From: Bolinopsis microptera | Lineage: Eukaryota; Ctenophora; Tentaculata; Lobata; Bolinopsidae | DNA: 60,000 nucleotides | Direction: 5' to 3' | NCBI RefSeq assembly: GCF_026151205.1 | Contig: NC_087072.1 | Coordinates: 25,883,799-25,943,798 of the forward strand | Part shown: positions 1 through 54,200 of the stretch, piece by piece | Position numbering within the stretch: position 1 is the first letter of the stretch | How the letters are laid out: each line of letters starts with the position of its first letter | Translations under genes and position numbers: made by a program | The notes under the pieces: model-generated | Databases searched by the model: none | What the model saw: only the letters and a program-made list of their open reading frames with translations | Told to the model about the DNA's origin: nothing

Positions 1-3000
1 GTGAGTATCAAATGAAGTGTCACACTGATGTTTACCTGATGTGAGTAACAAATGAAGTGTCACACTGATGTTTACCTGATGTGAGTAACAAATGAAGTGT
101 CACACTGATGTTTACCTGATGTGAGTAACAAATGAAGTGTCACACTGATGTTTACCTGATGTGAGTAACAAATGAAGTGTCACACTGATGTTAACCTGAT
201 GTAAGTAACAAATGAAGTGTCACACTGATGTTTACCTGATGTGAGTAACAAATGAAGTGTCACACTGATGTTAACCTGATGTGAGTAACAAATGAAGTGT
301 CACACTGATGTTTACCTGATGTGAGTAACAAATGAAGTGTCACACTGATGTTTACCTGATGTGAGTAACAAATGAAGTGTCACACTGATGTTAACCTGAT
401 GTAAGTAACAAATGAAGTGTCACACTGATGTTTACCTGATGTAAGTAACAAATGAAGTGTCACACTGATGTGTACCTGATGTAAGTATCAAATGAAGTGT
501 CACACTGATGTTTACCTGATGTGAGTATCAAATGAAGTGTCACACTGATGTGTACCTGATGTGAGTATCAAATGAAGTGTCACACTGATGTTAACCTGAT
601 GTAAGTAACAAATGAAGTGTCACACTGATGTGTACCTGATGTGAGTATCAAATGAAGTGTCACACTGATGTTTACCTGATGTGAGTAACAAATGAAGTGT
701 CACACTGATGTTAACCTGATGTGAGTAACAAATGAAGTGTCACACTGATGTTAACCTGATGTAAGTAACAAATGAAGTGTCACACTGATGTTTACCTGAT
801 GTGAGTAACAAATGAAGTGTCACACTGATGTTTACCTGATGTGAGTAACAAATGAAGTGTCACACTGATGTTAACCTGATGTAAGTAACAAATGAAGTGT
901 CACACTGATGTTTACCTGATGTGGGTAACAAATGAAGTGTCACACTGATGTTTACCTGATGTGAGTAACAAATGAAGTGTCACACTGATGTTTACCTGAT
1001 GTGAGTAACAAATGAAGTGTCACACTGATGTGTACCTGATGTAAGTAACAAATTAAGTGTCACACTGATGTTTACCTGATGTGAGTAACAAATGAAGTGT
1101 CACACTGATGTTTACCTGATGTGAGTAACAAATGAAGTGTCACACTGATGTTTACCTGATGTGAGTAACAAATGAAGTGTCACACTGATGTTAACCTGAT
1201 GTAAGTAACAAATGAAGTGTCACACTGATGTTTACCTGATGTGAGTAACAAATGAAGTGTCACACTGATGTTTACCTGATGTGAGTAACAAATGAAGTGT
1301 CACACTGATGTTAACCTGATGTAAGTAACAAATGAAGTGTCACACTGATGTTTACCTGATGTGGGTAACAAATGAAGTGTCACACTGATGTTTACCTGAT
1401 GTGAGTAACAAATGAAGTGTCACACTGATGTTTACCTGATGTGAGTAACAAATGAAGTGTCACACTGATGTGTACCTGATGTAAGTAACAAATTAAGTGT
1501 CACACTGATGTTAACCTGATGTAAGTAACAAATGAAGTGTCACACTGATGTTTACCTGATGTGAGTAACAAATGAAGTGTCACACTGATGTTTACCTGAT
1601 GTGAGTAACAAATGAAGTGTCACACTGATGTTAACCTGATGTAAGTAACAAATGAAGTGTCACACTGATGTTTACCTGATGTGGGTAACAAATGAAGTGT
1701 CACACTGATGTTTACCTGATGTGAGTAACAAATGAAGTGTCACACTGATGTTTACCTGATGTGAGTAACAAATGAAGTGTCACACTGATGTGTACCTGAT
1801 GTAAGTAACAAATGAAGTGTCACACTGATGTTTACCTGATGTGAGTAACAAATTAAGTGTCACACTGATGTGTACCTGATGTGAGTATCAAATGAAGTGT
1901 CACACTGATGTGTACCTGATGTAAGTAACAAATGAAGTGTCACACTGATGTTTACCTGATGTGGGTATCAAATGAAGTGTCACACTGATGTTTACCTGAT
2001 GTGAGTAACAAATGAAGTGTCACACTGATGTGTACCTGATGTGAGTAACAAATGAAGTGTCACACTGATGTTTACCTGATGTGAGTAACAAATGAAGTGT
2101 CACACTGATGTTTACCTGATGTGGGTAACAAATGAAGTGTCACACTGATGTTAACCTGATGTGAGTAACAAATGAAGTGTCACACAGATGTTTACCTGAT
2201 GTGAGTAACAAATGAAGTGTCACACTGATGTTAACCTGATGTGGCTATCAAATGAAGTGTCACACTGATGTTTACCTGATGTGGGTATCAAATGAAGTGT
2301 CACACTGATGTTTACCTGATGTGAGTAACAAATGAAGTGTCACACTGATGTTAACCTGATGTGGCTATCAAATGAAGTGTCACACTGATGTTTACCTGAT
2401 GTGGGTATCAAATGAAGTGTCACACTGATGTTTACCTGATGTGAGTAACAAATGAAGTGTCACACTGATGTTAACCTGATGTGGCTATCAAATGAAGTGT
2501 CACACTGATGTTTACCTGATGTGAGTAACAAATGAAGTGTCACACTGATGTTTACCTGATGTGGGTATCAAATGAAGTGTCACACTGATGTTTACCTGAT
2601 GTGAGTAACAAATGAAGTGTCACACTGATGTTAACCTGATGTGAGTATCAAATGAAGTGTCACACTGATGTTTACCTGATGTGGGTATCAAATGAAGTGT
2701 CACACTGATGTTTACCTGATGTGAGTAACAAATGAAGTGTCACACTGATGTTTACCTGATGTGAGTATCAAATGAAGTGTCACACTGATGTTTACCTGAT
2801 GTGAGTAACAAATGAAGTGTCACACTGATGTTTACCTGATGTGAGTAACAAATGAAGTGTCACACTGATGTTACCTGATGTGGGTATCAAATGAAGTGTC
2901 ACACTGATGTTTACCTGATGTGAGTAACAAATGAAGTGTCACACTGATGTTTACCTGATGTGAGTAACAAATTAAGTGTCACACTGATGTTTACCTGATG

Positions 3001-6000
3001 TGGGTAACAAATGAAGTGTCACACTGATGTTTACCTGATGTGAGTAACAAATGAAGTGTCACACTGATGTTAACCTGATGTGAGTATCAAATGAAGTGTC
3101 ACACTGATGTTTACCTGATGTGAGTAACAAATGAAGTGTCACACTGATGTTAACCTGATGTAAGTAACAAATGAAGTGTCACACTGATGTTAACCTGATG
3201 TGAGTATCAAATGAAGTGTCACACTGATGTTTACCTGATGTGAGTATCAAATGAAGTGTCACACTGATGTTTACCTGATGTAAGTAACAAATGAAGTGTC
3301 ACACTGATGTTTACCTGATGTAAGTAACAAATGAAGTGTCACACTGATGTTTACCTGATGTGAGTAACAAATGAAGTGTCACACTGATGTGTACCTGATG
3401 TAAGTAACAAATGAAGTGTCACACTGATGTTTACCTGATGTGAGTAACAAATGAAGTGTCACACTGATGTGTACCTGATGTGAGTAACAAATGAAGTGTC
3501 ACACTGATGTGTACCTGATGTGAGTAACAAATTAAGTGTCACACTGATGTTTACCTGATGTGAGTATCAAATGAAGTGTCACACTGATGTTTACCTGATG
3601 TGAGTATCAAATGAAGTGTCACACTGATGTTTACCTGATGTGAGTATCAAATGAAGTGTCACACTGATGTTTACCTGATGTGAGTAACAAATGAAGTGTC
3701 ACACTGATGTTAACCTGATGTAAGTAACAAATGAAGTGTCACACTGATGTGTACCTGATGTGGGTATCAAATGAAGTGTCACACTGATGTTAACCTGATG
3801 TAAGTATCAAATGAAGTGTCACACTGATGTTTACCTGATGTAGTATCAAATGAAGTGTCACACTGATGTTTACCTGATGTAGTAACAAATGAAGTGTCAC
3901 ACTGATGTTAACCTGATGTAAGTAACAAATGAAGTGTCACACTGATGTTTACCTGATGTGGGTAACAAATGAAGTGTCACACTGATGTTTACCTGATGTG
4001 AGTAACAAATGAAGTGTCACACTGATGTTTACCTGATGTGAGTAACAAATGAAGTGTCACACTGATGTTAACCTGATGTAAGTAACAAATGAAGTGTCAC
4101 ACTGATGTGTACCTGATGTGGGTATCAAATGAAGTGTCACACTGATGTTAACCTGATGTAAGTATCAAATGAAGTGTCACACTGATGTTTACCTGATGTA
4201 AGTATCAAATGAAGTGTCACACTGATGTTTACCTGATGTGAGTATCAAATGAAGTGTCACACTGATGTTTACCTGATGTGAGTAACAAATGAAGTGTCAC
4301 ACTGATGTTAACCTGATGTAAGTAACAAATGAAGTGTCACACTGATGTTTACCTGATGTGGGTATCAAATGAAGTGCACACTGATGTTTACCTGATGTGA
4401 GTAACAAATGAAGTGTCACACTGATGTTAACCTGATGTAAGTAACAAATGAAGTGTCACACTGATGTTTACCTGATGTGGGTATCAAATGAAGTGCACAC
4501 TGATGTTTACCTGATGTAAGTAACAAATGAAGTGTCACACTGATGTTAACCTGATGTGAGTATCAAATGAAGTGTCACACTGATGTTTACCTGATGTGAG
4601 TAACAAATGAAGTGTCACACTGATGTTAACCTGATGTGGGTATCAAATGAAGTGTCACACTGATGTTTACCTGATGTGAGTATCAAATGAAGTGTCACAC
4701 TGATGTTAACCTGATGTGAGTAACAAATGAAGTGTCACACTGATGTGTACCTGATGTGAGTAACAAATGAAGTGTCACACTGATGTGTACCTGATGTGAG
4801 TAACAAATGAAGTGTCACACTGATGTTAACCTGATGTGGGTATCAAATGAAGTGTCACACTGATGTTAACCTGATGTGAGTATCAAATGAAGTGTCACAC
4901 TGATGTTTACCTGATGTGGGTAACAAATGAAGTGTCACACTGATGTTTACCTGATGTAAGTAACAAATGAAGTGTCACACTGATGTTAACCTGATGTGGG
5001 TATCAAATGAAGTGTCACACTGATGTGTACCTGATGTAAGTAACAAATGAAGTGTCACACTGATGTGTACCTGATGTGGGTATCAAATGAAGTGTCACAC
5101 TGATGTTTACCTGATGTGGGTATCAAATGAAGTGTCACACTGATGTGTACCTGATGTGGGTATCAAATGAAGTGTCACACTGATGTTTACCTGATGTGAG
5201 TATCAAATGAAGTGTCACACTGATGTGTACCTGATGTGGGTATCAAATGAAGTGTCACACTGATGTTTACCTGATGTGGGTATCAAATGAAGTGTCACAC
5301 TGATGTTTACCTGATGTGAGTAACAAATGAAGTGTCACACTGATGTTTACCTGATGTGAGTAACAAATGAAGTGTCACACTGATGTTTACCTGATGTGGG
5401 TATCAAATGAAGTGTCACACTGATGTGTAACTGATGTGAGTATCAAATGAAGTGTCACACTGATGTTTACCTGATGTGGGTATCAAATGAAGTGTCACAC
5501 TGATGTTTACCTGATGTAAGTAACAAATGAAGTGTCACACTGATGTTTACCTGATGTGAGTATCAAATGAAGTGTCACACTGATGTGTACCTGATGTGGG
5601 TAACAAATGAAGTGTCACACTGATGTTTACCTGATGTGGGTAACAAATGAAGTGTCACACTGATGTTTACCTGATGTAAGTAACAAATGAAGTGTCACAC
5701 TGATGTTTACCTGATGTGAGTATCAAATGAAGTGTCACACTGATGTGTACCTGATGTGGGTAACAAATGAAGTGTCACACTGATGTTTACCTGATGTGGG
5801 TAACAAATGAAGTGTCACACTGATGTTAACCTGATGTGGGTAACAAATGAAGTGTCACACTGATGTGTACCTGATGTGAGTAACAAATGAAGTGTCACAC
5901 TGATGTTAACCTGATGTGAGTATCAAATGAAGTGTCACACTGATGTGTACCTGATGTGAGTAACAAATGAAGTGTCACACTGATGTGTACCTGATGTGGG

Positions 6001-7500
6001 TATCAAATGAAGTGTCACACTGATGTTTACCTGATGTGAGTAACAAATGAAGTGTCACACTGATGTTTACCTGATGTGAGTAACAAATGAAGTGTCACAC
6101 TGATGTTTACCTGATGTGAGTAACAAATGAAGTGTCACACTGATGTTTACCTGATGTGAGTAACAAATGAAGTGTCACACTGATGTGTACCTGATGTGGG
6201 TATCAAATGAAGTGTCACACTGATGTTTACCTGATGTGGGTATCAAATGAAGTGTCACACTGATGTTTACCTGATGTGAGTAACAAATGAAGTGTCACAC
6301 TGATGTTTACCTGATGTGGGTATCAAATGAAGTGTCACACTGATGTGTACCTGATGTGAGTAACAAATGAAGTGTCACACTGATGTGTACCTGATGTGAG
6401 TAACAAATGAAGTGTCACACTGATGTTAACCTGATGTGGGTATCAAATGAAGTGTCACACTGATGTGTACCTGATGTAAGTATCAAATGAAGTGTCACAC
6501 TGATGTTTACCTGATGTGAGAAACAAATGAAGTGTCACACTGATGTGTACCTGATGTAAGTAACAAATGAAGTGTCACACTGATGTTAACCTGATGTGAG
6601 TAACAAATGAAGTGTCACACTGATGTTTACCTGATGTGGGTATCAAATGAAGTGTCACACTGATGTGTACCTGATGTGAGTATCAAATGAAGTGTCACAC
6701 TGATGTTTACCTGATGTGAGTATCAAATGAAGTGTCACACTGATGTGTAACTGATGTGAGTAACAAATGAAGTGTCACACTGATGTGTACCTGATGTGGG
6801 TAACAAATGAAGTGTCACACTGATGTGTACCTGATGTGAGTAACAAATGAAGTGTCACACTGATGTTAACCTGATGTGGGTAACAAATGAAGTGTCACAC
6901 TGATGTTAACCTGATGTGGGTAACAAATGAAGTGTCACACTGATGTTTACCTGATGTGAGTAACAAATGAAGTGTCACACTGATGTGTACCTGATGTAAG
7001 TAACAAATGAAGTGTCACACTGATGTGTACCTGATGTAAGTAACAAATGAATTGTCACACTGATGTTTACCTGATGTGAGTAACAAATGAAGTGTCACAC
7101 TGATGTTTACCTGATGTGAGTAACAAATGAAGTGTCACACTGATGTTTACCTGATGTGAGTAACAAATGAAGTGTCACACTGATGTTTACCTGATGTGAG
7201 TAACAAATGAAGTGTCACACTGATGTTTACCTGATGTGGGTATCAAATGAAGTGTCACACTGATGTGTACCTGATGTGAGTAACAAATGAAGTGTCACAC
7301 TGATGTTTACCTGATGTGGGTATCAAATGAAGTGTCACACTGATGTTTACCTGATGTGGGTAACAAATGAAGTGTCACACTGATGTGTACCTGATGTGAG
7401 TAACAAATGAAGTGTCACACTGATGTGTACCTGATGTGAGTAACAAATGAAGTGTCACACTGATGTTTACCTGATGTGAGTATCAAATGAAGTGTCACAC
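1..7500. repeat. 40-bp satellite array, about 187 copies, inside a zinc-finger gene intron
   Basis: Uninterrupted head-to-tail 40-bp units run from the window edge to the zinc-finger exon, so the true array is longer. Units differ at a few fixed sites: GTGAGT/GTAAGT/GTGGGT, AACA/ATCA, and TTTACC/TTAACC/TGTACC. Rare one-base deletions occur near 2870, 3840, 3880 and 4375. Read on the minus strand, each unit repeats the last bases of the exon ending at 7471 together with its 5' splice site (CATCAG followed by GTAAAC, GTTAAC or GTACAC). Variant order shows higher-order structure: the AATTAAG variant recurs 440 bp apart (about 1050 and 1490), and GTGGCTATCA recurs every 120 bp (2241, 2361, 2481). 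Confidence 0.98.
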
Positions 7501-9001
7501 TGATGACACCTGTAGCCACGATTAGGATGAGTCTTCATGTGTTCTTTTAATTTTTCCTTGCTGGTGATTATCTTGCAAGTTCTGCACGTGCTCAGTTTGA
7601 ACTGATGCACTCCGAAGACGTGGGTTTTAAGGTTGCTTTTCTGGTTGAATCTTGCTTCACAGTAAGGACATTGGTGAAGTTTCTGTTTTGTGTCAGGGCT
7701 CAGCACCTCGTTTTTTGGGGCTGTGGTCACGGCATCATCTAGAAGTTGGTAGCCTGAGGGGAGGGTGGACTTCTTGGGTGTCGCGATTTGGGGCAACTTA
7801 AACAAATTGTTCTGCAGCATAAAGTCTGCTAAATTCAGATCCTGAGAAGAGAAAGAGTGTTACCATGGTTACGTAGGCAATAATAGTTTTCATCGTGTAA
7901 AATCATATTTTAAATCTCGATTTAATCGGGTCCTGAAACATTATGTTAATCAGGATTTACCGGCTGAAATAGTGAGGGTTGAAGTCTGGCAGTGGAAGTG
8001 GCCGGGTTTGCTAGGATAGACTTAGTTAGGTTAGATATGTCTGTCTTCTCAGAACTCTGTTGCAAAGCATTGGAGAGCGCTAATCTTAACGTTCTTAACT
8101 CGTCTAGTTGTACGTTCTCCAATTTGTTAGTCGCTGAAGTGTAAATGTATCAATATCATGTATATAGAATATCTGTCCATTATTTATTAGCTACGTGGCA
8201 ATTGCTCTGAAGTTGTACCAGGATATCAAATGATAGAGTTTCGTATTCAATTTCACAAACAACCACTTTAATGTATTTTTGTTCACTTGTCAAGCGCTGA
8301 TAAAATCAATCAAACTTCAAAGCAGTTGCTTGAATAAACATTGTGAAGTTTTAAATATTGTTTAGTTTATGAACAAAAGTATTTGCTTTGTCTGTGCAGC
8401 ACGTGTAAACAATATTACGAGTTATAGACTTAGTGAGTAGGTACACTGTGATCGTTCTCACTGAGTATAATAACAAACCTTAAAGAAGATGCAAGAAAAG
8501 GGCTGAAAGGAGAGAGATCAAAAGGAGTAGGATTGTCTGGTTTAGAGAGGTTACTGTTGTTGGATGTGGGGCACAATACACCTATAATACCGTCTACTAG
8601 GGGGGCAGCTCTGTTGTCCACTAAAGGTGACGTCATGGCTCTGCCTCCCTGGTCCGAGGTACTGGGCGAGGTGAAGGGACTTGACTCAGTATAAATGAGG
8701 GGAGGGGAGGGTTTCCTTGGCGAGACATTGTTCTCTGTTGGAGGCAGAGTTAGAGTTATAGAGGGTGACGTTGAAACACTGCAGGTGGGTCTAGGATCTA
8801 TATTTGGGGGAGTATTGATAGACACTGATGCTAGGGAAACGTGGCCGGTTGTGGTGTTCACGGGCTTCTGTAAGCCCGCTTCCTCTTTTGCAACTTTGGC
8901 TGGCAGGTCCACGTGATTGTCATCTAGAGGCACGTGCGCGTGGTCCGAGCTCCAGGGACGTTTACATGCTCGTCTTATGATACTGTCCCTCTGTATATCA
9001 C
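7471..9001 (-). CDS. C2H2 zinc-finger protein, partial (three exons seen)
   Basis: Probable DNA-binding transcription factor, broken by the window edge. Three exons can be read on the minus strand: 9001-8462 (acceptor TTTGCAG), 8133-7961 (acceptor ACTTCAG, donor CCG|GTAAAT) and 7841-7471 (acceptor TTCTCAG, donor CATCAG|GTAAAC). Phases agree if the first exon uses the donor CTCA|GTGAGA; a donor at 8479 would put a stop in the next exon. The first exon is Ser/Pro/Thr-rich and disordered-looking. The second encodes a short helix-prone segment (KLENVQLDELRTLRLALSNA). The third holds finger 1 (CPYC ... H-x4-H), finger 2 (CRTC ... HMKTH) and the first half of finger 3 (CHQCDTSFDTHIR), which must finish in an exon left of the window, beyond at least 7.4 kb of satellite. 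The start codon is not identified and the exact family is unknown. Confidence 0.75.
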
Positions 9002-24660: not shown

Positions 24661-25920
24661 CAGACTTGCCGTTATCAAACGAACAATCCTGAAATAGAAT
24701 ATAATTTAAAACTAGTTTTTGACTTAAAATACAAAAATATACAGTCTCTGAGATTTGTAATAAATCAAGGTGTGACGACTGATAAATCAAGGTGTGACGA
24801 CTGATAAATCAAGGTGTGACGACTGATAAATCAAGGTGTGACGACTGATAAATCAAGGTGTGACGACTGATAAATCAAGGTGTGACGACTGATATATCAA
24901 GGTGTGACGACTGATATATCAAGGTGTGACGACTGATAAATCAAGGTGTGACGACTGATATATCAAGGTGTGACGACTGATATATCAAGGTGTGACGACT
25001 GATAAATCAAGGTGTGACGACTGATAAATCAAGGTGTGACGACTGATAAATCAAGGTGTGACGACTGATAAATCAAGGTGTGACGACTGATATATCAAGG
25101 TGTGACGACTGATATATCAAGGTGTGACGACTGATAAATCAAGGTGTGACGACTGATAAATCAAGGTGTGACGACTGATAAATCAAGGTGTGACGACTGA
25201 TATATCAAGGTGTGACGACTGATAAATCAAGGTGTGACGACTGATAAATCAAGGTGGGACGACTGATAAATCATTAAAGGAATGATATTTACCAATCGTC
25301 TGATCAAACCACAAAATTCAATAGTATTAATTTCAACTGCAATACAAATTTGTAGCACAGTAATAATAATTGATATTAAAAAATGGTTAAGCAGTATAGT
25401 ATTTACCAAGTTTCTTAAATCGAAGAATGCTTCGTGTATCTTCTCCTAAAAATATAGGGTTATACTATGAACTATTACTATGTACTACATAAGGTAACAG
25501 TTATACCCTGGCTCTATTCCATGTGATCGAAAGAAATGAGTGGACAGAAGTAAATGCATTGTCGCATGTAGATTAAATTACAGTTTATCATAAGCACAAA
25601 ATATAATACTGCAAATGATAGCAAAAAAAGGTAGAATAAATAAATTCATGTCTAAAATAAAATTTGATAAACTTAATTTAAACTATAACTATAACTAGCC
25701 ATGAGACATAGCAATGTTTAGTGTCTACAGACATGGTGAGGGGGGTCACGTGACTTACCAATATGTGAAAGTACACCTTCTCAAGGGGCAGGTATTTGGC
25801 AGTGCAATCAGAACCAAACGAGATATCAGTCTGACATATTTGCGAGAGATTAACTAGAGGGGTACTATTCTCGATGCATGAAGACATTATAGCTGAAACG
25901 GGTAACGAGTTATTACTCAT
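24661..25920 (-). CDS. Small-exon minus-strand gene, model incomplete
   Basis: Four segments look like exons. 25920-25759 opens with ATG (MSNNSLPVSAIMSS), contains SQICQTDISFGSDCTAKYLP and ends at ATTG|GTAAGT. 25445-25407 is 39 nt (acceptor TATTTTTAG, donor CTTG|GTAAAT). 25336-25293 is 44 nt (acceptor TGTATTGCAG, donor ATTG|GTAAAT). 24688-24661 is 28 nt (acceptor TATTTCAG, donor TCTG|GTAAGT). The last three join in one open frame: RFKKL, V at the junction, EINTIEFCGLIRRL, then DCSFDNGKS. The first segment ends in a phase that does not fit the second (+1), so an exon is missing, a site is wrong, or they are separate transcripts. No family is recognised. The intron between the 44-nt and 28-nt exons contains the 22-bp array. 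Confidence 0.45.
24766..25274. repeat. 22-bp minisatellite, about 23 copies, intronic
   Basis: The unit is GATAAATCAAGGTGTGACGA plus CT, with a TATATC variant. On the gene's strand the array begins about 18 bp after the donor at 25292 and fills most of the intron to the 28-nt exon. It copies the flank rather than the donor itself. Confidence 0.96.
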
Positions 25921-36377: not shown

Positions 36378-38378
36378 TTAACAAAATGCTTCCCTCACAA
36401 CAGAATGTTCACGAGCAATAATCGTTGAAAGGGCGCGACAATGTCCTCGAATATCAATAAGTACCATCTGCAAAATTACAAGTCTCGAACATGAAAAACA
36501 TCAATGTTATAAGACCAAACGCTTGCACACTGACGTTAGATGTTTAGTCGTACTAATAATATAATTTGCAGTTCTTAAAATGTTTAGTTGGGGTTGCCCC
36601 CCCCAGTAGCAGTTGTAGTATTAGTTAAAATGTTTAGTTGGGGTTGCCCCCCCAGTAGCAGTTGTAGTAGTAGTTAAAATGTTTAGTTGTGGTTGCCCCC
36701 CCCCCCAGTAGCAGTTGTAGTAGTAGTTAAAATGTTTAGTTGGGGTTGCCCCCCCCAGTAGCAGTTGTAGTAGTAGTTAAAATGTTTAGTTGTGGTTGCC
36801 CCCCCCCCTCCCCAGTAGCAGTTGTAGTATTAGTTAAAATGTTTAGTTGGGGTTGCCCCCCCAGTAGCAGTTGTAGTAGTAGTTAAAATGTTTAGTTGTG
36901 GTTGCCCCCCCCCCAGTAGCAGTTGTAGTAGTAGTTAAAATGTTTAGTTGGGGTTGCCCCCCCCCCCAGTAGCAGTTGAAGTAGCAGTTAAAATGTTTAG
37001 TTGTGGTTGCCCCCCCCAGTAGCAGTTGTAGTAGTAGTTAAAATGTTTAGTTGGGGTTGCCCCCCCCCCAGTAGCAGTTGAAGTAGCAGTTAAAATGTTT
37101 AGTTGTGGTTGCCCCCCCCCCAGTAGCAGTTGTAGTAGTAGTTAAAATATTTAGTTGGGGTTGCCCCCCCCCCAGTAGCAGTTGTAGTAGTAGTTAAAAT
37201 GTTTAGTTGTGGTTGCCCCCCCCCCCAGTAGCAGTTGCAGTAGTAGTTAAAATGTTTAGTTGTGGTTGCCCCCCCCCCCCCCAGTAGCAGTTGTAGTAGT
37301 AGTTAAAATGTTTAGTTGTGGTTGCCCCCCCCCCAGTAGCAGTTGTAGTAGTAGTTAAAATGTTTAGTTGAGGTTGCCCCCCCCCCCAGTAGCAGTTGAA
37401 GTAGCAGTTAAAATGTTTAGTTGTGGTTGCCCCCCCCCCCAGTAGCAGTTGTAGTAGTAGTTAAAATGTTTAGTTGGGGTTGCCCCCCCCCCAGTAGCAG
37501 TTTAAGTAGCAGTTAAAATGTTTAGTTGTGGTTGCCCCCCCCCCCCAGTAGCAGTTGTAGTAGTAGTTAAAATGTTTAGTTGTGGTTGCCCCCCCCCCCC
37601 CAGTAGCAGTTGTAGTAGCAGTTAAAATGTTTAGTTGTGGTTGCCCCCCCCCCAGTAGCAGTTGTAGTAGTAGTTAAAATGTTTAGTTGGGGTTGCCCCC
37701 CCCCCAGTAGCAGTTGCAGTAGTAGTTAAAATGTTTAGTTGTGGTTGCCCCCCCCAGTAGCAGTTGAAGTAGCAGTTAAAATGTTTAGTTGTGGTTGCCC
37801 CCCCCCCAGTAGCAGTTGTAGTAGTAGTTAAAATGTTTAGTTGGGGTTGCCCCCCCCCCCCAGTAGCAGTTGTAGTAGTAGTTAAAATGTTTAGTTGTGG
37901 TTGCCCCCCCCAGTAGCAGTTGCAGTAGTAGTTAAAATGTTTAGTTGTGGTTGCCCCCCCCCAGTAGCAGTTGTAGTAGTAGTTAAAATGTTTAGTTGTG
38001 GTTGCCCCCCGGCCCCCCCAGTAGCAGTTGCAGTAGTAGTTAAAATGTTTAGTTGGGGTTGCCCCCCCCCCAGTAGCAGTTGTAGTAGTAGTTAAAATGT
38101 TTAGTTGGGGTTGCCCCCCCCCCAGTAGCAGTTGTAGTAGTAGTTAAAATGTTTAGTTGTGGTTGCCCCCCCCCCCAGTAGCAGTTGTAGTAGTAGTTAA
38201 AATGTTTAGTTGGGGTTGCCCCCCCCCCCCCCAGTAGCAGTTGTACTAACGTTTGCTGGTGGATGTCATGTACTCTAGCAGGCCACCAGTCCTGCTCGTA
38301 TAATCCCCACACAACACTCTCTCGTCCAATGCAGCTCTTAACATCACTCTCAGCCTCTTCCACCGCCTCTTTCCACTC
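36378..38378 (-). CDS. Tudor-domain-like protein, partial (last two exons)
   Basis: Tudor domains are small beta barrels, often binding methylated Arg or Lys. The first exon starts at 38378 (acceptor TTATGTACAG) and encodes EWKEAVEEAESDVKSC, then VVWGLYEQDWWPARVHDIHQ. The final exon starts at 36467 (acceptor TAATTTTGCAG) and reads MVLIDIRGHCRALSTIIARE to a TAA at 36378. Joined in phase 0 (donor TTA|GTACAA at about 38244) they match the Tudor pattern W-[WY]-xAxV ... V-x-[FI]-x-D-x-x-G. The stronger-looking donor CAAAC|GTTAGT at 38250 gives another phase and a less Tudor-like tail, so the junction is uncertain. WWPAR also suggests a PWWP domain. Upstream exons lie further right and were not found. 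The intron is almost wholly a C-rich array. Confidence 0.5.
36575..38247. repeat. About 53-bp minisatellite with variable poly-C tract, about 31 copies, intronic
   Basis: The unit is TTAAAATGTTTAGTTGTGGT, then TGCC with 7 to 15 C, then CAGTAGCAGTTGTAGTAG. G/T alternates in TTGGGG/TTGTGG, and GAAGTAGCAG variants occur. The array starts within about 10 bp of the donor of the Tudor-like exon. On the plus strand each unit has a long pyrimidine run followed by CAG, which resembles a 3' splice site, but the gene runs the other way. Confidence 0.96.
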
Positions 38379-40014: not shown

Positions 40015-42444
40015 TCTTGTATTATTATTTTACGTTACTGCAGCTCTTGTATTATTGTTGTAAATTACTGCAGCTCTAGTATTATTATTGTACATTACTC
40101 CAGCTCTTGTATTATTATTGTACATTACTGCAGCTCTTGTATTATTGTTGTAAATTACTGCAGCTCTAGTATTATTATTGTACATTACTGCAGCTCTTGT
40201 ATTATTGTTGTAAATTACTGCAGCTCTTGTATTATTGTTGTACATTACTGCAGCTCTTGTATTATTATTGTACATTACTGCAGCTCTTGTATTATTATTG
40301 TACATTACTGCAGCTCTTGTATTATTGTTGTACATTACTGCAGCTCTTGTATTATTGTTGTACATTACTGCAGCTCTTGTATTATTGTTGTACATTACTG
40401 CAGCTCTTGTATTATTGTTGTACATTACTGCAGCTCTTGTATTATTGTTGTACATTACTGCAGCTCTTGTATTATTGTTGTACATTACTGCAGCTCTTGT
40501 AATATTGTTGTACATTACTGCAGCTCTTGTATTATTGTTGTACATTACTGCAGCTCTTGTATTATTGTTGTACATTACTGCAGCTCTTGTATTATTGTTG
40601 TACATTACTGCAGCTCTTGTATTATTGTTGTACATTACTGCAGCTCTTGTATTATTGTTGTACATTACTGCAGCTCTTGTATTATTGTTGTACATTACTG
40701 CAGCTCTTGTATTATTGTTGTACATTACTGCAGCTCTTGTATTATTATTGTACATTACTGCAGCTCTTATATTATTATTGTACATTACTGCAGCTCTTGT
40801 ATTATTATTGTACATTACTGCAGCTCTTGTATTATTGTTGTACATTACTGCAGCTCTTGTATTATTGTTGTACATTACTGCAGCTCTTGTATTATTGTTG
40901 TACATTACTGCAGCTCTTGTATTATTGTTGTACATTACTGCAGCTCTTGTATTATTGTTGTACATTACTGCAGCTCTTGTATTATTATTGTATATTACTG
41001 CAGCTCTTGTATTATTATTGTATATTACTGCAGCTCTTGTATTATTATTGTACATTACTGCAGCTCTTGTATTATTGTTGTACATTACTGCAGCTCTTGT
41101 ATTATTGTTTTACATTACTGCAGCTCTTGTATTATTATTGTACATTACTGCAGCTCTTGTATTATTATTGTACATTACTGCAGCTCTTGTATTATTATTA
41201 TATATTACTGCAGCTCTTGTATTATTATTGTACATTACTGCAGCTCTTGTATTATTGTTGTACATTACTGCAGCTCTTGTATTATTATTGTACGTTACTG
41301 CAGCTCTTGTATTATTATTGTATATTACTGCAGCTCTTGTATTATTATTGTACATTACTGCAGCTCTTGTATTATTATTGTACATTACTGCAGCTCTTGT
41401 ATTATTATTGTACATTACTGCAGCTCTTGTATTATTATTGTACATTACTGCAGCTCTTGTATTATTATTGTACATTACTGCAGCTCTTGTATTATTCTTG
41501 TACATTACTGCAGCTCTTGTATTATTATTGTACATTACTGCAGCTCTTGTATTATTGTTGTACATTACTGCAGCTCTTGTATTATTATTGTATATTACTG
41601 CAGCTCTTGTATTATTATTGTATATTACTGCAGCTCTTGTATTATTGTTGTATATTACTGCAGCTCTTGTAATATTGTTGTACATTACTGCAGCTCTTGT
41701 ATTATTGTTGTACGTTACTGCAGCTCTTGTATTATTGTTGTACATTACTGCAGCTCTTGTATTATTATTGTACATTACTGCAGCTCTTGTATTATTGTTG
41801 TACATTACTGCAGCTCTTGTATTATTATTGTATATTACTGCAGCTCTTGTATTATTATTGTATATTACTGCAGCTCTTGTATTATTGTTGTATATTACTG
41901 CAGCTCTTGTAATATTGTTGTACATTACTGCAGCTCTTGTATTATTATTGTACATTACTGCAGCTCTTGTATTATTGTTGTACATTACTGCAGCTCTTGT
42001 ATTATTGTTGTACATTACTGCAGCTCTTGTATTATTGTTTTACATTACTGCAGCTCTTGTATTATTATTGTACATTACTGCAGCTCTTGTATTATTATTG
42101 TACATTACTGCAGCTCTTGTATTATTATTGTATATTACTGCAGCTCTTGTATTATTATTGTAAATTACTGCAGCTCTTGTATTATTATTGTACATTACTG
42201 CAGCTCTTGTATTATTGTTGTACATTACTGCAGCTCTTGTATTATTATTGTACGTTACTGCAGCTCTTGTATTATTATTGTATATTACTGCAGCTCTTGT
42301 ATTATTATTGTACATTACTGCAGCTCTTGTATTATTATTGTACATTACTGCAGCTCTTGTATTATTATTGTACATTACTGCAGCTCTTGTATTATTATTG
42401 TACATTACTGCAGCTCTTGTATTATTATTGTACATTACTGCAGC
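40015..42444. repeat. 30-bp satellite, about 81 copies
   Basis: The unit is CTCTTGTATTATTATTGTAC plus ATTACTGCAG, with frequent ATT/GTT and TAC/TAT variants. Every unit has a CTGCAG site. Since 30 is divisible by three and several frames lack stops, long ORFs appear on both strands; they are repeat translations. The right edge lies inside a LINE fragment, and the first unit continues the LINE sequence AGCTGCAGTAATGTAC read on the minus strand. Three diverged units recur at 43013-43108. Confidence 0.97.
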
Positions 42445-42690
42445 TTTTAGGTCTAATAACACTGGTAGATCTTTGCCCAGCATGAGATACTGCATGAGGA
42501 ACAATACGTTTGAGAGAGTGTCCTGTAGATAGTCAGGGGCCATTCCAAGCAATCCTCTTTTTAACATCCAGCCAGTTAAAGCTTTAAAGTGTAGCCAGTA
42601 AGTGTAGTTTCCGTAGATCATCTTCCATGTGATCATGTTTGTATTTCCAAGTGACCACTTTTGCAGCAGTATTCTGTATGAGGTGTAATT
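42445..42690 (-). mobile_element. Degraded LINE reverse-transcriptase C-terminal fragment
   Basis: Read on the minus strand in one frame it gives LHLIQNTAAKVVTWKYKHDH, then MEDDLRKLHLL, a broken middle with stops, and AGQRSTSVIRPKSCSN. These match in order the fragment at 58363-58830 and the conserved C-terminal region of CR1/Jockey-type reverse transcriptases (QNAAAxxVTG ... KLHWLxVRKR ... xRSFSVxxPxxxN). It carries stops and frameshifts and is inactive. Its 3' end grades into the 30-bp satellite. Confidence 0.75.
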
Positions 42691-44524: not shown

Positions 44525-44659
44525 GTCCGCTGACTTTTACACACGCTTTGATTGATTCATTATTTGTATGAAGGGGAACATGCTAATGTACTAAAATACC
44601 TGTTTACAAGGCATCTATACTTGTCACAACTCCGTTAATAATTCCCTTTGATTTGCAGA

Positions 44660-47600
44660 ATGGGAAAAGAGGAAGGAATGGCTAGTGAGGCTCCCCCCTC
44701 GTACGTTGACTCCACTCAACCCGCAGCAGCGCCTCCCTATCAATATCCACCACAAGCAAGCTATCCGCCACAAGCAAGCTATCCACCACAAGCAAGCTAT
44801 CCGCCACAAGCAAGCTATCCACCACAAGGAAGCTATCCGCCACAAGCAAGCTATCCGCCACAAGGAAGCTATCCACCACAAGGAAGCTATCCGCCACAAG
44901 GGAGCTATCCTCCAACTGGTTACCCACCTGTACAAGCTGATTATACACCACCCACTAGCAACCATCCTCAACAATATCAACCATATCAAGGTTAGCTACC
45001 CCCTCAACAATGTCTACCATATCAAGGTTAGCTACCCCCTCAACAATATCTACCATATCAAGGTTAGCTACCCCCTCAACAATATCTACCATATCAAGGT
45101 TAGCTACCCCCTCAACAATATCAACCATATCAAGGTTAGCTACCCCCTCAACAATGTCTACCATATCAAGGTTAGCTACCACCTCAACAATGTCTACCAT
45201 ATCAAGGTTAGCTTCCCCCTCAACAATTTCTACCATATCAAGGTTAGCTACCCCCTCAACAATTTCTACCATATCAAGGTTAGCTACCCCCTCAACAATA
45301 TCAACCATATCAAGGTTAGCTACCCCCTCAACAATTTCTACCATATCAAGGTTAGCTACCCCCTCAACAATGTCTACCATATCAAGGTTAGCTACCCCCT
45401 CAACAATTTCTACCGTATCAAGGTTAGCTACCCCCTCAACAATGTCAACCATATCAAGGTTAGCTACCCCCTCAACAATGTCTACCATATCAAGGTTAGC
45501 TACCCCCTCAACAATATCAACCATATCAAGGTTAGCTACCCCCTCAACAATGTCTACCATATCAAGGTTAGCTACCCCCTCAACAATTTCTACCATATCA
45601 AGGTTAGCTACCCCCTCAACAATTTCTACCATATCAAGGTTAGCTACCCCTCAACAATATCAACCTTATCAAGGTTAGCTACCCCCTCAACAATGTCTAC
45701 CATATCAAGGTTAGCTACCCCCTCAACAATTTCTACCATATCAAGGTTAGCTACCCCCTCAACAATGTCTACCATATCAAGGTTAGCTACCCCCTCAACA
45801 ATTTCTACCATATCAAGGTTAGCTACCCCCTCAACAATTTCTACCATATCAAGGTTAGCTACCCCCTCAACAATTTCTACCATATCAAGGTTAGCTACCC
45901 CTCAACAATTTCTACCATATCAAGGTTAGCTACCCCCTCAACAATTTCTACCATATCAAGGTTAGCTACCCCCTCAACAATTTCTACCATATCAAGGTTA
46001 GCTACCCCCTCAACAATATCAACCATATCAAGGTTAGCTACCCCCTCAACAATTTCTACCATATCAAGGTTAGCTACCCCCTCAACAATTTCTACCATAT
46101 CAAGGTTAGCTACCCCCTCAACAATTTCTACCATATCAAGGTTAGCTACCCCCTCAACAATTTCTACCATATCAAGGTTAGCTACCCCCTCAACAATTTC
46201 TACCATATCAAGGTTAGCTACCCCTCAACAATTTCAACCATATCAAGGTTAGCTACCCCCTCAACAATATCAACCATATCAAGGTTAGCTACCCCCTCAA
46301 CAATTTCTACCATATCAAGGTTAGCTACCCCCTCAACAATTTCTACCATATCAAGGTTAGCTACCCCCTCAACAATTTCTACCATATCAAGGTTAGCTAC
46401 CCCCTCAACAATTTCTACCATATCAAGGTTAGCTACCCCCTCAACAATTTCTACCATATCAAGGTTAGCTACCCCCTCAACAATGTCTACCATATCAAGG
46501 TTAGCTACCCCCTCAACAATTTCTACCATATCAAGGTTAGCTACCCCCTCAACAATATCTACCATATCAAGGTTAGCTACCCCCTCAACAATTTCTACCA
46601 TATCAAGGTTAGCTACCCCTCAACAATTTCTACCATATCAAGGTTGGCTACCCCCTCAACAATGTCTACCATATCAAGGTTAGCTACCCCCTCAACAATA
46701 TCTACCATATCAAGGTTAGCTACCCCCTCAACAATTTCTACCATATCAAGGTTAGCTACCCCCTCAACAATTTCTATCATATCAAGGTTAGCTACCCCCT
46801 CAACAATGTCTACCATATCAAGGTTAGCTACCCCTCAACAATTTCTACCATATCAAGGTTAGCTACCCCCTCAACAATGTCTACCATATCAAGGTTAGCT
46901 ACCCCCTCAACAATTTCTACCATATCAAGGTTAGCTACCCCCTCAACAATTTCTACCATATCAAGGTTAGCTACCCCCTCAACAATGTCTACCATATCAA
47001 GGTTAGCTACCCCCTCAACAATATCTACCATATCAAGGTTAGCTACCCCCTCAACAATTTCTACCATATCAAGGTTAGCTACCCCCTCAACAATTTCTAC
47101 CATATCAAGGTTAGCTACCCCCTCAACAATGTCTACCATATCAAGGTTAGCTACCCCCTCAACAATTTCTACCATATCAAGGTTAGCTACCCCCTCAACA
47201 ATTTCTACCATATCAAGGTTAGCTACCCCCTCAACAATTTCTACCATATCAAGGTTAGCTACCCCCTCAACAATTTCTACCATATCAAGGTTAGCTACCC
47301 CCTCAACAATTTCTACCATATCAAGGTTAGCTACCCCCTCAACAATGTCTACCATATCAAGGTTAGCTACCCCCTCAACAATTTCTACCATATCAAGGTT
47401 AGCTACCCCCTCAACAATTTCTACCATATCAAGGTTAGCTACCACCTTAACAATGTCTACCATATCAAGGTTAGCTACCACCCCTCCCGCCGCTGTAAAA
47501 TTGAAATAACGTCAGGTGTACAAATGGTGACTGCATCTCCTTGTAACGCTTGCAATATGCAGAATTTTGGAGGGGGAAACCCGATACAAGGTAAGATATT

Positions 47601-49774
47601 TATGTCGCAATCGATTTTTCTTCTTTAGTATAAGATTATGTAAACCTTTTAGCTTGTGTGTTGATAACAGTCGCTCTCTTATCAGTAGAATCGTTTAATT
47701 ACACTACGCTCACATACAAGTTAAGTACATCATGGACGATATGGAATTATTAGAACGTTTGTCAGCTCGCTCTGTGTATGTGACTGAAGTGCATCAGGAC
47801 TTCCATACTTGGATTACAGAACTTAACGGAGTCTCAAACTGTGATGAATCAGAGTTCTCAGCAGAACAATTGGAAAAACCAGGGAAACCGACTAAGAAAG
47901 TTATGTCAAAGTTATTGTACAGTTTGTACAGATATATGAAACAATTTGTCAGAGAAGCTGTCAAAATGAAAGAAAATTTGGAGGAGTTGAAGAGCTCTCT
48001 TATTCAGACACAAAATTCGGTGATTAAACTGCAGAGTGAACTTCTTGAGGGCAAATCAAAGCAGTTGGAATCTGTTCAGACCACCGTAAAATCTGCCGTT
48101 CAGGAAAGTGTACAAGCTGAGATCAGGTCATACAGTAAAGCTGTTTCAAAGGTCCCGCCGGAAACTGCAATGACAGAACAGAGCTTGAAAAAGGTAGTTC
48201 AAAGTGCTGTATCGAAAGAGGACCGCAGTAGGAATTTGGTCGTGTTTGGTTTAATGGAGTCAGATGATGAGAAACTATCCGATAAAGTAGACGAACTGTT
48301 TGAACAAATCGAAGTAAAACCACGCTTTGAAGCTGTCAGGATTGGAAGGAGATCAGCCGACAAGACCAGACCTGTCAAAATATCGGTTACAAATACCAAC
48401 AATGTCCACGAGATATTATTGAAATCGAAGAAACTGAAACTGAGCCAGCACCACAAAACAGTTTTCATTTCTCCGGATCGGTCACCTTAAGGAGCAAACC
48501 AAACACCATCTGCTGGTATTGGAAATGAAACAGAAGGCAAAGGAAGATTTGAATATACGCTATTATATCAGAAGTGGTATTATTTGTTGTGAGGACAAGA
48601 TCCTAGACTAATTTAAATCATTTACGACATTGTCATATTCATTTTCATGCTAGTCTTTTTCACTCACCCTTTAGAGCCGCATTGACATGGTTCGTAGCTG
48701 GCACTTGTGCCGGCTGCTAATCATATGGGCGGGACATAAGCACATTATTTCATTTCATTTCATTTCATTTCATTTCATTTCATTTCATTTCATTTCATTT
48801 CATTTCATTTCATTTCATTTCATTTCATTTCATTTCATTTCATTTCATTTCATTTCATTTCATTTCATTTCATTTCATTTCATTTCATTTCATAGTTAAA
48901 TTTGTTTTGGAATTAAAATTTTCTGATAAAAATATGCGAACCTGCATATCTAATATTAATTATTCGTAGGAATATAAAATTAACATACTGTATCTGTATT
49001 GATTTACAACTCAAATAGTTGGAGTCCTAAGAAAGCAACCATGGAGAAAATGGACACACTCCATCGTAGACACCTCAGGTCCATTTTAAACATCAAATGG
49101 CCTAAAGGTATGATAATCAACAAAACATTGTATGAACGGTGCAAAGTTGAAAAGTTATCCAAGCGTATTGAACACCAGCGGTGGAAGATGTTTGGACACA
49201 TTCTCAGGAGTATGGAGAACACCCCAGCGCAAACGGCTCTCTCTTTTGCAATTGAATCAGATAATTTATTCATTGGTAGATTGGGGAGACCTAGAATGAA
49301 CTTGTTATCGGTTTTAAGAAGTGATTTAAGTAGTAGAAATTTGCAAATGGACAACTTGCATGAATTGAACGAAATTAGAGATATAGCTGCATGCAACAGA
49401 TGTTGGGAAAATCTTTTTCAAGGGTACAGTTTACCGCATTAAGGTATTTTTAAGAATCATTTTTGTCGGTAAGATCCTGTTTTATAATAATAATAATACT
49501 GTAAACACTATTAACTAACTGCATTCCTACCGCAGGCTGTCTGCTAAGCTCGAATGGAAGAAAATGTCAGTTTATTTACGTAATAGCGGCAGTGGTTGTT
49601 GTAATGGTACTCATCTCTACTATTGACGGAGGTAATGCCTTCCCCCAGGCAGCTCTCATTCCTTTTATAATCTTCACAATTGTAGTAAACTTGATGTTTT
49701 ACATTCCCGTCACCATTCAAAGATCTAGAAACCCCCACAGTTGCGACAGAAAGAACGAGTCACTTTGGTGTTAA
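44660..49774 (+). CDS. Proline-rich PPxY two-pass membrane protein, copy 1 (three exons)
   Basis: Exons are 44660-44990, 47516-47590 and 49536-49774, about 214 residues. Acceptors are TTTGATTTGCAG (just before the ATG), AACGTCAG and CCTACCGCAG; donors are ATCAAG|GTTAGC and ACAAG|GTAAGA. Both introns are phase 1. Exon 1 encodes an acidic start, a PPSY motif (residues 12-15) and six-residue SYPPQA/G repeats. Exon 2 adds SPCNACNMQNFGGG, a CxxC motif. Exon 3 has two hydrophobic stretches (about IYVIAAVVVVMVLIS and ALIPFIIFTIVVNLMF) and a polar tail NPHSCDRKNESLWC. PPxY motifs usually bind WW domains of Nedd4-type ligases. The architecture resembles LITAF/BRI3-like endosomal proteins, but the LITAF HxCxxC half is missing, so the family is not assigned. 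Intron 1 is a satellite and intron 2 holds LINE pieces. Confidence 0.8.
44985..47478 (+). repeat. 36-bp satellite made of exon-end plus 5' splice site, about 69 copies, intron 1
   Basis: The unit is CTACCATATCAAG|GTTAGC plus TACCCCCTCAACAATTT. The first copy is the real exon 1 end (CAACCATATCAAG|GTTAGC). In the exon's frame each unit reads LPPQQFLPYQG then TAG, so the array looks like the coding Pro/Gln/Tyr repeat closed by a stop that forms part of the donor. One copy has TGG instead of TAG (46643-46647). Single-C deletions in the C5 run occur at several units. The array ends about 37 bp before exon 2. Confidence 0.97.
47732..48611 (+). pseudogene. LINE ORF1-type protein with a frameshift
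   Basis: The 252-residue frame starts at ATG 47732. It has a charged, helical middle (coiled-coil-like, about residues 60-140), then VSKEDRSRNLVVFGLMES, the conserved entry to the RRM-like or transposase-22-like domain of non-LTR retrotransposon ORF1 proteins, and RIGRRSADKTRPVKI. The frame stops at 48488-48490 right after FISPDRSP. The downstream +1 frame continues the family pattern (KEQTKHHLLVLEMKQKAKED, then RYYIRSGIICCEDK) to a stop near 48611. One extra base near 48484 explains the break. It sits in intron 2 of the proline-rich gene. Confidence 0.8.
48748..48894 (+). repeat. (TTTCA)n tail, about 29 copies
   Basis: Perfect pentanucleotide repeat directly after the LINE 3' end, as expected for the simple-repeat tail of CR1/L2-like elements that later expanded. 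Confidence 0.97.
48985..49442 (+). mobile_element. LINE endonuclease/reverse transcriptase C-terminal fragment
   Basis: A 147-residue open frame starts inside the family pattern (LIYNSNSW, then MEKMDTLHRRHLRSILNIKW), followed by KRIEHQRWKMFGHILRSMEN and LGRPRMN, ending with a natural TAA at 49442. This is the C-terminal region seen in RTE-like and related LINE proteins (ExxLDxFHRRxLRxIL ... RRxRWxGHxxRM). The polymerase core is absent, so it is 5'-truncated. It is a different family from the two minus-strand fragments. It lies in intron 2 of the proline-rich gene, about 95 bp before exon 3. Confidence 0.75.
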
Positions 49775-51274: not shown

Positions 51275-54200
51275 ATGGACTCAGAAAAGGGAGGAGCTGC
51301 TCCCCCGCCTTATACTGCCCCAGGCTATCCTTCACCTCAACAAGGCTATCCTCCCGCACCCCCTCAAGCAAGTTATCCTCCCGCACTCCCTCAAGCAAGT
51401 TATCCTCCCCAAGCAAGTTATCCACCTGTACCCCCTCAAGCAAGTTATCCTCCCCAAGCAAGTTATCCTCCCGCACCCCCTCAAGCAAGTTATCCTCCCC
51501 AAGCAAGTTATCCTCCCCAAGCAAGTTATCCGCCTCAAGCAAGTTATCCTCCCCAAGCAAGTTATCCGCCCCAAGCAAGTTATCCGCCCCAAGCAGGCTA
51601 TCCGCCCCAAGCAGGCTACCCCGTACAACAATATCCGGCCCAAAATGTGGTAGTGGGAAATCCAGGCTATCCCGGACAAGCAGTTCCAGGTAATTATCAC
51701 TACACTTATTGTTGGTGCTGTATCTAATTATCACTACAGTTATTGTTGGTGCTGTATCTAATTATCACTTCAGTTATTGTTGGTGCTGTATCTAATTATC
51801 ACTTCAGTTATTGTTGGTGCTGTATCTAATTATCACTACAGTTATTGTTGGTGCTGTATCTAATTATCACTTCAGTTATTGTTGGTGCTGTATCTAATTA
51901 TCACTACAGTTATTGTTGGTGCTGTATCTAATTATCACTTCAGTTATTGTTGGTGCTGTATCTAATTATCACTACAGTTATTGTTGGTGCTGTATCTAAT
52001 TATCACTACAGTTATTGTTGGTGCTGTATCTAATTATCACTTCAGTTATTGTTGGTGCTGTTTCTAATTATCACTACAGTTATTATTGGTGCTGTATCTA
52101 ATTATCACTTCAGTTATTGTTGGTGCTGTTTCTAATTATCACTTCAGTTATTGTTGGTGCTGTATCTAATTATCACTACAGTTATTGTTGGTGATGTTTC
52201 TAATTATCACTACAGTTATTGTTGGTGCTGTATCTAATTATCACTACAGTTATTGTTGGTGATGTTTCTAATTATCACTACAGTTATTGTTGGTGCTGTA
52301 TCTAATTATCACTACAGTTATTGTTGGTGCTGTATCTAATTATCACTACAGTTATTGTTGGTGCTGTATTTAATTATCACTACAGTTGTTGTTGGTGCTG
52401 TTTCTAATTATCACTACAGTTATTGTTGGTGCTGTATCTAATTATCACTTCAGTTATTGTTGGTGCTGTTTCTAATTATCACTACAGTTATTGTTGGTGC
52501 TGTATCTAATTATCACTACAGTTATTGTTGGTGCTGTATCTAATTATCACTACAGTTATTGTTGGTGCTGTATCTAATTATCACTACAGTTATTGTTGGT
52601 GCTGTATCTAATTATCACTTCAGTTATTGTTGGTGCTGTTTCTAATTATCACTTCAGTTATTGTTGGTGCTGTTTCTAATTATCACTTAAGTTATTGTTG
52701 GTGCTGTTTCTAATTATCACTACAGTTATTGTTGGTGCTGTATCTAATTATCACTACAGTTATTGTTGGTGCTGTATCTAATTATCACTACAGTTATTAT
52801 TGGTGCTGTATCTAATTATCACTACAGTTATTATTGGTGCTGTATCTAATTATCACTACAGTTATTGTTGGTGCTGTATCTAATTATCACTTCAGTTATT
52901 GTTGGTGCTGTATCTAATTATCACTACAGTTATTGTTGGTGCTGTATCTAATTAACACTTCAGTTATTGTTGGTGCTGTATCTTATTATCACTTCAGTTA
53001 TTGTTGGTGCTGTATCTAATTATCACTACAGTTATTGTTGGTGCTGTATCTAATTATCACTACAGTTGTTGTTGGTGCTGTATCTAATTATCACTTCAGT
53101 TATTGTTGGTGCTGTATCTAATTATCACTACAGTTGTTGTTGGTGCTGTTTCTAATTATCACTTAAGTTATTGTCGGTGCTGTATCTAATTATCACTTCA
53201 GTTATTATTGGTGCTGTATCTAATTATCACTTCAGTTATTGTTGGTGCTGTATCTAATTATCACTACAGTTATTGTTGGTGCTGTATCTAATTATCACTA
53301 CAGTTATTGTTGGTGCTGTTTCTAATTATCACTACAGTTATTGTTGGTGCTGTATCTAATTATCACTACAGTTGTTGTTGGTGCTGTTTCTAATTATCAC
53401 TTCAGTTATTGTTGGTGCTGTTTCTAATTATCACTACAGTTATTATTGGTGCTGTTTCTGATTATCACTTCAGTTATTGTTGGTGCTGTATCTAATTATC
53501 ACTACAGTTATTGTTGGTGCTGTATCTAATTATCACTTCAGTTATTGTTGGTGCTGTATCTAATTATCACTACAGTTATTGTTGGTGCTGTATCTAATTA
53601 TCACTACAGTTGTTGTTGGTGCTGTTTCTAATTATCACTTCAGTTATTGTTGGTGCTGTTTCTAATTATCACTACAGTTATTATTGGTGCTGTTTCTGAT
53701 TATCACTTCAGTTATTGTTGGTGCTGTATCTAATTATCACTACAGTTATTGTTGGTGCTGTATCTAATTATCACTTCAGTTATTGTTGGTGCTGTATCTA
53801 ATTATCACTACAGTTATTGTTGGTGCTGTATCTAATTATCACTTCAGTTATTGTTGGTGCTGTATCTAATTATCACTTCAGTTATTGTTGGTGCTGTATC
53901 TAATTATCACTTCAGTTATTGTTGGTGCTGTATCTAATTATCACTTCAGTTATTGTTGGTGCTGTTTCTAACTGTATGGGATGCAACATGGAGAGCGGGA
54001 TGTATGGTAGATACGGAGGTAACGTTGGAGGTCGTTATGGTCATAACCAATATAACGGTGAGAGCAATAGTACCAGTCCAGTACGCACATGTGTACGCAC
54101 AGTGTCCAGTACGCACATCGCACATGCACCAATTAATTGCTATCACAAAAGCGAGTTTCACAAACATTTTCAGTATCACCAACAAATATTTTCTACATTT

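What the first reader, a model, noticed from the sequence alone, without database searches (positions are those of the whole stretch)
1..53970. General association of minisatellites with splice junctions
In all five multi-exon models an intron carries an array that contains or begins within about 20 bp of a splice site: 7471 and 44990 (donor inside the unit), 53950 (acceptor inside the unit), 38250 (array about 10 bp after donor), and 25292 (about 18 bp after donor). Further arrays carry consensus donors in every unit (GTAAGTATC at 10442, AAG|GTGAGT at 38740, GTAAGTGT at 43200). Intron creation by tandem duplication of AGGT-bearing exon DNA is an established hypothesis; here the process seems to have kept going. 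This could be a distinct class of self-amplifying intron sequence.
Basis: inference. Interest (0 to 1): 0.88.

Follow-up and report, generated by a model that had tools for sequence, protein, structure and literature searches.

The report
Repeat arrays built from splice junctions
In this animal-like genome several introns consist almost entirely of a short DNA stretch, often the exon-intron border itself, repeated tens to hundreds of times; the same kind of array was described before in amphioxus genes as 'mirages', and here the arrays can make up nearly the whole intron.

Summary
The anatomy is real. At the three 'further arrays' (10442, 38740, 43200) I saw donor words but no coding exon. The same anatomy occurs elsewhere in this genome: of 20 arrays in introns whose exons I could read, 17 have an edge within 22 bp of a junction or across it, and 8 cross. 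Exons are easiest to recognise beside an array, so this fraction is biased upward. Arrays with the donor word AGGTRAGT are about ten times denser than arrays with its reversal. The kind is known: boundary-spanning 'mirage' minisatellites of amphioxus (PMC3087553, passages). A distinct class of self-amplifying intron is not supported: units are unrelated between arrays, and two related genes share an intron (same phase, within one residue) but carry unrelated arrays, so there the intron is probably older. Open: whether duplication breakpoints favour the 5' splice site, and whether any intron was born this way.

The parts
1..7505 (-). 40-bp array, 237 copies in all (-1985..7505); fills the intron of a zinc-finger gene and covers the last 35 bp of the upstream exon, donor in each unit
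7471..7859 (-). open frame holding the zinc-finger exon that ends at the donor (first intron base 7470)
   Evidence: Pfam zf-C2H2
24760..25273 (-). 22-bp array, 23 copies, starting 19 bp after donor 25292 and ending 71 bp before acceptor 24688 (exons weakly supported)
36575..38245 (-). 52-bp C-rich array, starting 4-22 bp after donor 38250 and ending about 107 bp before acceptor 36467
38251..38377 (-). coding exon EWKEAVEEAESDVKSCIGRESVVWGLYEQDWWPARVHDIHQQ, upstream of donor 38250 (exon start read by eye, approximate)
   Evidence: PWWP 0.037, under the cut-off
44660..44990 (+). exon 1 of first paralogue; last 25 bp lie in the array
44966..47479 (+). 36-bp array, 70 copies, across donor 44991; ends 36 bp before acceptor 47516
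47516..49774 (+). exon 2 (47516-47590), intron 2 with a LINE-like stretch and (ATTTC)n, exon 3 (49536-49774)
51275..51689 (+). exon 1 of second paralogue, ending at donor 51690
51691..53971 (+). 34-bp array, 67 copies, forming the whole of intron 1 and the first 22 bp of exon 2; acceptor (first exon base 53950) in each unit
53950..54489 (+). exon 2 (53950-54057), intron without array, exon 3 (54236-54489)

Best explanation
These are 'mirage'-type minisatellites. A short tandem duplication whose block spans, or lies next to, a splice junction of an existing intron was later expanded and homogenised by ordinary minisatellite turnover (slippage, unequal exchange). A donor-spanning duplication is tolerated because the first copy keeps the exon and a working donor and all later copies fall into the intron; an acceptor-spanning one is tolerated because the last copy keeps acceptor and exon. 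Growth and deletion inside the intron can leave little of its original sequence. Shown: the anatomy (periodicity reaching 22-40 bp into exons and stopping sharply, a donor or acceptor in each unit), unrelated units, strong homogeneity, and one related gene pair with the same intron and unrelated arrays. Inferred: that the first or last copy is the one spliced, that introns came first in general, and the turnover mechanism.
For: Exact footprints: -35, -25, -26, -29, -26, -40 bp at six independent donors (one of them at two duplicated loci), -22 and -28 bp at two acceptors. Joins across the array restore known domains: the C2H2 finger; an Img2-like mitochondrial ribosomal protein gene, 23.7 bits for the downstream exon alone, 32.4 bits joined at the first-unit donor, one continuous match, 2 bits under the cut-off. 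Related genes at 44660 and 51275 share phase 1 and, in the alignment, an intron position within one residue, with unrelated units. Unit variation: in the 9.5-kb array most positions do not vary among 237 units and seven vary in 8-31%. The anatomy equals that described for amphioxus. Uniform placement of blocks in introns of 75-150 bp would make 54% of arrays cross.
Against: No RNA data: splice choice is not shown. Several introns have almost no unique sequence left (0-36 bp outside the array), shorter than a working intron, so that intron birth or large deletions must be considered. With introns of 132-399 bp uniform placement predicts 29% crossing; 5 of 8 had P = 0.048, 5 of 10 after two later cases P = 0.13. 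The RNA-binding-protein-like case may be a coding repeat. The position of intron 2 in the two related genes agrees in phase but lies in a stretch that does not align well.
Confidence: 0.7

Rival explanations
1. Intron birth: the array made the intron. An exon stretch (with AGGT, or flanked by a short direct repeat) was tandemly duplicated, became spliced out, and kept growing.
For: The zinc-finger intron and the -37893 intron are nearly all array; the latter starts exactly at the donor (offset 0) and ends 2 bp before the exon start I chose by eye, and the word CCACTG stands on both sides of it. In the zinc-finger array all but 5 of the 40 bp of a unit are exon sequence, in the L026 array all but 3 of 32.
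Against: Every donor-crossing unit ends in at least 3 bases that I read as intron; the 44660/51275 pair shares the intron but not the array; after the arrays of L026 and L031 unique intron sequence remains (197 bp in L031). No relative without the intron was available.
Confidence: 0.15
2. Breakpoints drawn to the 5' splice site: duplication blocks start 25-40 bp inside the exon and end within the first few intron bases because breaks or template switches happen there, for example during transcription.
For: In six of six independent donor-crossing arrays the block ends 3, 4, 5, 8, 11 and 10-16 bp into the intron, with units of 32-44 bp; P = 0.0008 against uniform placement, taking 13 for the last.
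Against: The idea was formed on the same six cases; three came from a pattern that limits units to 14-44 bp; fresh cases could not be obtained. The two acceptor-crossing blocks hold more intron sequence (12 and 36 bp by subtraction).
Confidence: 0.15
3. No link at all beyond short introns: arrays land anywhere in non-coding DNA, and in short introns any array is close to a junction; reading exons next to arrays makes the link look strong.
For: 33 of 42 larger arrays in 130 kb have no readable intron; the automated edge test was negative; HPRT, C2_1 and (ATTTC)n arrays are interior; kinase-domain introns are only 132-399 bp (eight).
Against: It does not explain sharp homology 22-40 bp into exons in 8 of 20 cases, nor the ten-fold excess of the donor word in arrays over its reversal.
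Confidence: 0.3
4. Assembly artefact: collapsed or misjoined repeats.
For: One array is next to a run of 100 N (block C2_1).
Against: Many loci with different units, sharp exon edges, exons in frame on both sides; long arrays without N in the window.
Confidence: 0.03

Closest known systems
'Mirages': minisatellite-like tandem duplications of exon-intron boundaries in amphioxus (globins BflGb6, BflGb9; Adh3) - PMC3087553, passages read; the original Adh3 paper (PMC117041) was not held
   Same: Units span 5' or 3' intron boundaries of coding genes; many units keep AG/GT signals; a link to intron gain is proposed there
Human internal tandem repeats at exon-intron boundaries in segmental duplications - PMC2812944, passages read
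   Same: Tandem repeats lying on exon-intron boundaries
   Different: There variable between paralogues and linked by transcripts to novel introns; here no transcript evidence and much larger copy numbers
[quoted passage not shown] potato RdRp case) - PMC4974935, abstract read; Rogers 1989 seen only as a reference
   Same: Duplication across an intron-exon boundary
   Different: A single duplication that made a new intron; here long arrays, and in the one testable pair the intron is shared without the array
Introner-like elements (recalled, no call)
   Same: Repeated sequence that fills introns
   Different: Introners are dispersed copies of one family; here each array has its own unit

Membership tests
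Mirage minisatellites | tandem repeat unit spans an exon-intron boundary | tested here: met
   8 of 20 arrays in readable introns; the other 12 do not cross
Mirage minisatellites | both 5' and 3' boundaries can be duplicated | tested here: met
   six independent donors, two acceptors
Mirage minisatellites | regular splicing is kept | not testable with these tools
   no transcripts; open frames after splicing only
Mirage minisatellites | length instability between alleles or cells | not testable with these tools
   one assembly only; two duplicated loci differ in copies, 37 and 26
Intron gain by AGGT exon duplication | unit is wholly exon-derived and holds AGGT | tested here: inconclusive
   units end in 3-16 bases read as intron, but an ancestral exon cannot be compared
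Intron gain by AGGT exon duplication | relatives lack the intron | tested here: not met
   only one pair could be tested: the 44660 and 51275 genes share it
Introner-like elements | same sequence dispersed over many introns | tested here: not met
   3 of 2,145 unit pairs alike, none between two junction arrays; one unit is shared by two loci with like flanks, L026 and L027

The most novel reading that the evidence does not exclude
Splice junctions are themselves hot spots of tandem duplication in this lineage: blocks reach 25-40 bp into the exon and end within the first few intron bases, so that introns are replaced by arrays of their own splice sites, in unrelated genes and more than once at the same intron, with occasional birth of new introns made only of such units (candidate at -37893).
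Probability: 0.15. Interest if true: 0.85.

Novelty: new member of a known kind. Interest (0 to 1): 0.55.

Why it matters
Splicing would have to pick the right site among tens to hundreds of near-identical ones, a natural test of how the first donor or the last acceptor is chosen. The arrays also bring up to 40 bp of coding sequence within reach of repeat homogenisation. Whether such arrays replace introns or make them bears on the old question of where introns come from, and relatives plus RNA could settle it.

Tried and rejected
Tried without result. (1) Protein database search: switched off, not sent. (2) A home-made gene finder (one search failed, one search ran): chained false exons; not used. 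(3) An automated edge score: 12 of 108 edges (11.1%) against 12.1% at random positions at threshold 6, 0 of 108 against 4.5% at threshold 20; it gave the zinc-finger junction a negative score, so I take it as weak evidence against. (4) Word GTRAGT in unit consensus: 8 of 41 arrays near the window against 2 of 41 for the reversed word, 1 of 38 against 0 of 38 in random blocks; in the zinc-finger array the word is on the strand opposite to the gene. (5) The RNA-binding-protein-like array at -14068: its 42-bp unit stays open in one frame, so the donor in use, or whether the repeats are coding, is unclear; I still count it as crossing. (6) The 52-bp array -36796..-30347: junction not clear, left out of the tally. 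(7) PDB match for the joined Img2-like protein: none up to 0.1. (8) Under Pfam's curated cut-offs: Img2, the upstream Sushi exon, PWWP, BAR, RRM_1 piece. No family matched the exons of L026, L029, L030, L040 and of the 64338-69524 array, which rest on reading frame and splice signals alone. (9) Assembly artefact as a general cause.

Rows dropped before counts: of five reversed-word arrays one is a coding repeat (L035) and one has no coding flank that I saw (L038), so 3 of 5 enter the tally; of six donor-word loci two have the same unit and like flanks and count once; of 42 larger arrays in 130 kb, 33 have no readable intron. The tally of 11 in 130 kb includes two arrays of 6-bp and 5-bp units.
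Full report
What was checked. The window lies 0.26 Mb from the end of a 26.2-Mb contig of a 264.65-Mb genome in 232 contigs. No name, annotation or file was available. Arrays cover about half of the window and 41.5% of 90 kb, against 1.5-54% (median 5%) in ten 20-kb blocks at fixed positions on three contigs.

The five named junctions. Exons were rebuilt by reading frame and splice signals. The zinc-finger gene (minus) has its first intron base at 7470; the fetched left neighbour shows the next exon starting at -1997, so the intron is 9.47 kb and nearly all array. The 29 bases before the donor code for part of a C2H2 finger that only the downstream exon completes; finger models match across the join. 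The genes at 44660 and 51275 splice to open frames of three exons, all introns in phase 1; their last two exons are related (21 of 74 identical in the C-terminal part; 30% over the alignment). Intron 1 sits within one residue of the same place in that alignment; intron 2 agrees in phase but lies in a poorly aligned stretch. In the first gene a 36-bp array crosses the donor of intron 1; in the second an unrelated 34-bp array starts 1 bp after the donor and runs 22 bp into exon 2. The arrays at 38250 and 25292 start 4-22 and 19 bp after their donors and do not cross; their exons have little or no homology support. At 10442, 38740 and 43200 I saw no coding exon.

Around the window. In 70 kb of neighbouring sequence I read further cases: an RNA-binding-protein-like gene with a 42-bp array over at least 26 bp of exon; a (TAACAG)n array 2 bp after the next donor of the zinc-finger gene; a 64-bp, 5.2-kb array over 28 bp of exon at an acceptor (64338-69524); a 15-bp array exactly at a donor (-37893); an 11-bp array 22 bp after a donor (80308). 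With the (ATTTC)n array as the exception, 10 of 11 arrays in readable introns of this 130 kb lie at a junction; 9 of these 10 belong to the 42 larger arrays of the stretch.

Elsewhere in the genome. Three copies of AGGTRAGT spaced by 6-36 bp match 2,312 times, the reversed word 198 times. The listing is capped at about 100 places. By arrays it shows six loci (five independent) in the first 4.18 Mb of contig 1, and for the reversed word five arrays in contig 1 and the first 13.5 Mb of contig 2, 39.7 Mb: about ten-fold. I fetched all eleven. All five independent donor-word arrays have an edge at a splice site that I could read: three cross donors (Img2-like mitochondrial ribosomal protein gene, -40; Sushi-domain gene, -26; a gene without family match, -29 at two duplicated loci), one starts 12 bp after a donor, one ends 15 bp before an acceptor. 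In three of the five the word lies on the strand opposite to the gene, so the ten-fold excess is not simply repeated donors; I cannot explain that part. Of the five reversed-word arrays three lie in readable introns: dynein heavy chain (4 bp before the acceptor; exons match at 1.4e-35), an unnamed gene (17 bp before the acceptor) and HPRT (interior, 412 bp after the donor; 1.4e-14); one is a coding repeat and one could not be placed. One array of a random block ends 49 bp before its acceptor. In sum 17 of 20 arrays in readable introns are within 22 bp of, or across, a junction, 8 of them across; 12 of 15 without the donor-word set. Exons are recognised most easily next to an array, so these fractions are biased upward, and the tails printed (0.004 and 0.0001 against a 43% that I set by hand) are not a valid test. 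An automated test on 108 edges found nothing.

How it probably works. Periodicity runs unbroken or nearly so into the exon and stops sharply, as a tandem duplication block would. A donor-spanning block leaves the first donor in place, an acceptor-spanning block the last acceptor, so both can be neutral if the outermost site is used. In the zinc-finger and 44660 genes the frame meets a stop directly after the donor if the intron is kept (sequences), which would select for use of the first donor; that is inference. Within arrays a few positions vary at high frequency and the rest hardly at all, as after repeated amplification of few variants. Units of different arrays are unrelated.

Null model. 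With introns of 132-399 bp (eight gaps between adjacent kinase-domain matches, read by me) uniform block placement would make 29% of arrays cross; 5 of 8 has P = 0.048, 5 of 10 after two later cases P = 0.13. With introns of 75-150 bp it is 54% and P = 0.44. Crossing alone therefore needs no special process. The place of the block ends in donor-crossers (3 to 11, or 16, bp into the intron in six of six, P = 0.0008) would, but it was noticed on the same data.

Known or new. PMC3087553 (passages) describes the anatomy in amphioxus as 'mirages' and proposes a link to intron gain; human and potato cases are in print (PMC2812944, passages; PMC4974935, abstract). Seven searches of the open library, read as listings, showed me no report of such arrays in another lineage; subscription papers are not covered and the original Adh3 paper was not held. 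I file this as a new member of a known kind. The organism may be a ctenophore: kinase matches fall almost only on contigs 1-13, and a listing gives 13 chromosomes for Mnemiopsis (PMC11797021); that is weak inference.

Noticed in passing
L026, L027, L029, L030: The donor word AGGTRAGT in these arrays lies on the strand opposite to the gene that I read, yet the word is about ten times denser in arrays than its reversal. Unexplained.
   Followed up: partly
L026 and L027 (C1:36,300-38,400 and C1:761,100-762,900): Two loci with the same 32-bp unit and like flanks, 37 and 26 copies: a duplicated segment with different array lengths.
   Followed up: no
L034, -36796 to -30347: 6.45-kb, 52-bp array (124 copies) directly after an ShK-domain exon; junction not resolved.
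   Followed up: no
L014/L015 (block C2_1), 5726-5896 and 18436-18618, minus strand: Two near-identical exons, each with an array of a different unit upstream; one array borders a run of N.
   Followed up: no
window 44744-44914 and 51335-51613: Coding minisatellites (YPPQAS-like repeats) in exon 1 of both related genes; their units are alike.
   Followed up: no
window 40014-42445: 30-bp array, open in several frames on both strands because the unit is a multiple of three without stops.
   Followed up: no
window 47699-49439: LINE-like open frames inside intron 2 of the 44660 gene (by eye, no family match over the cut-off).
   Followed up: no
-5335 to -5259: Short telomere-like (AACCCT)n stretch inside the contig.
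   Followed up: no
whole genome sample: Array coverage differs from 1.5% to 54% between 20-kb blocks; the window and block C1_1 lie within about 1 Mb of contig ends.
   Followed up: partly
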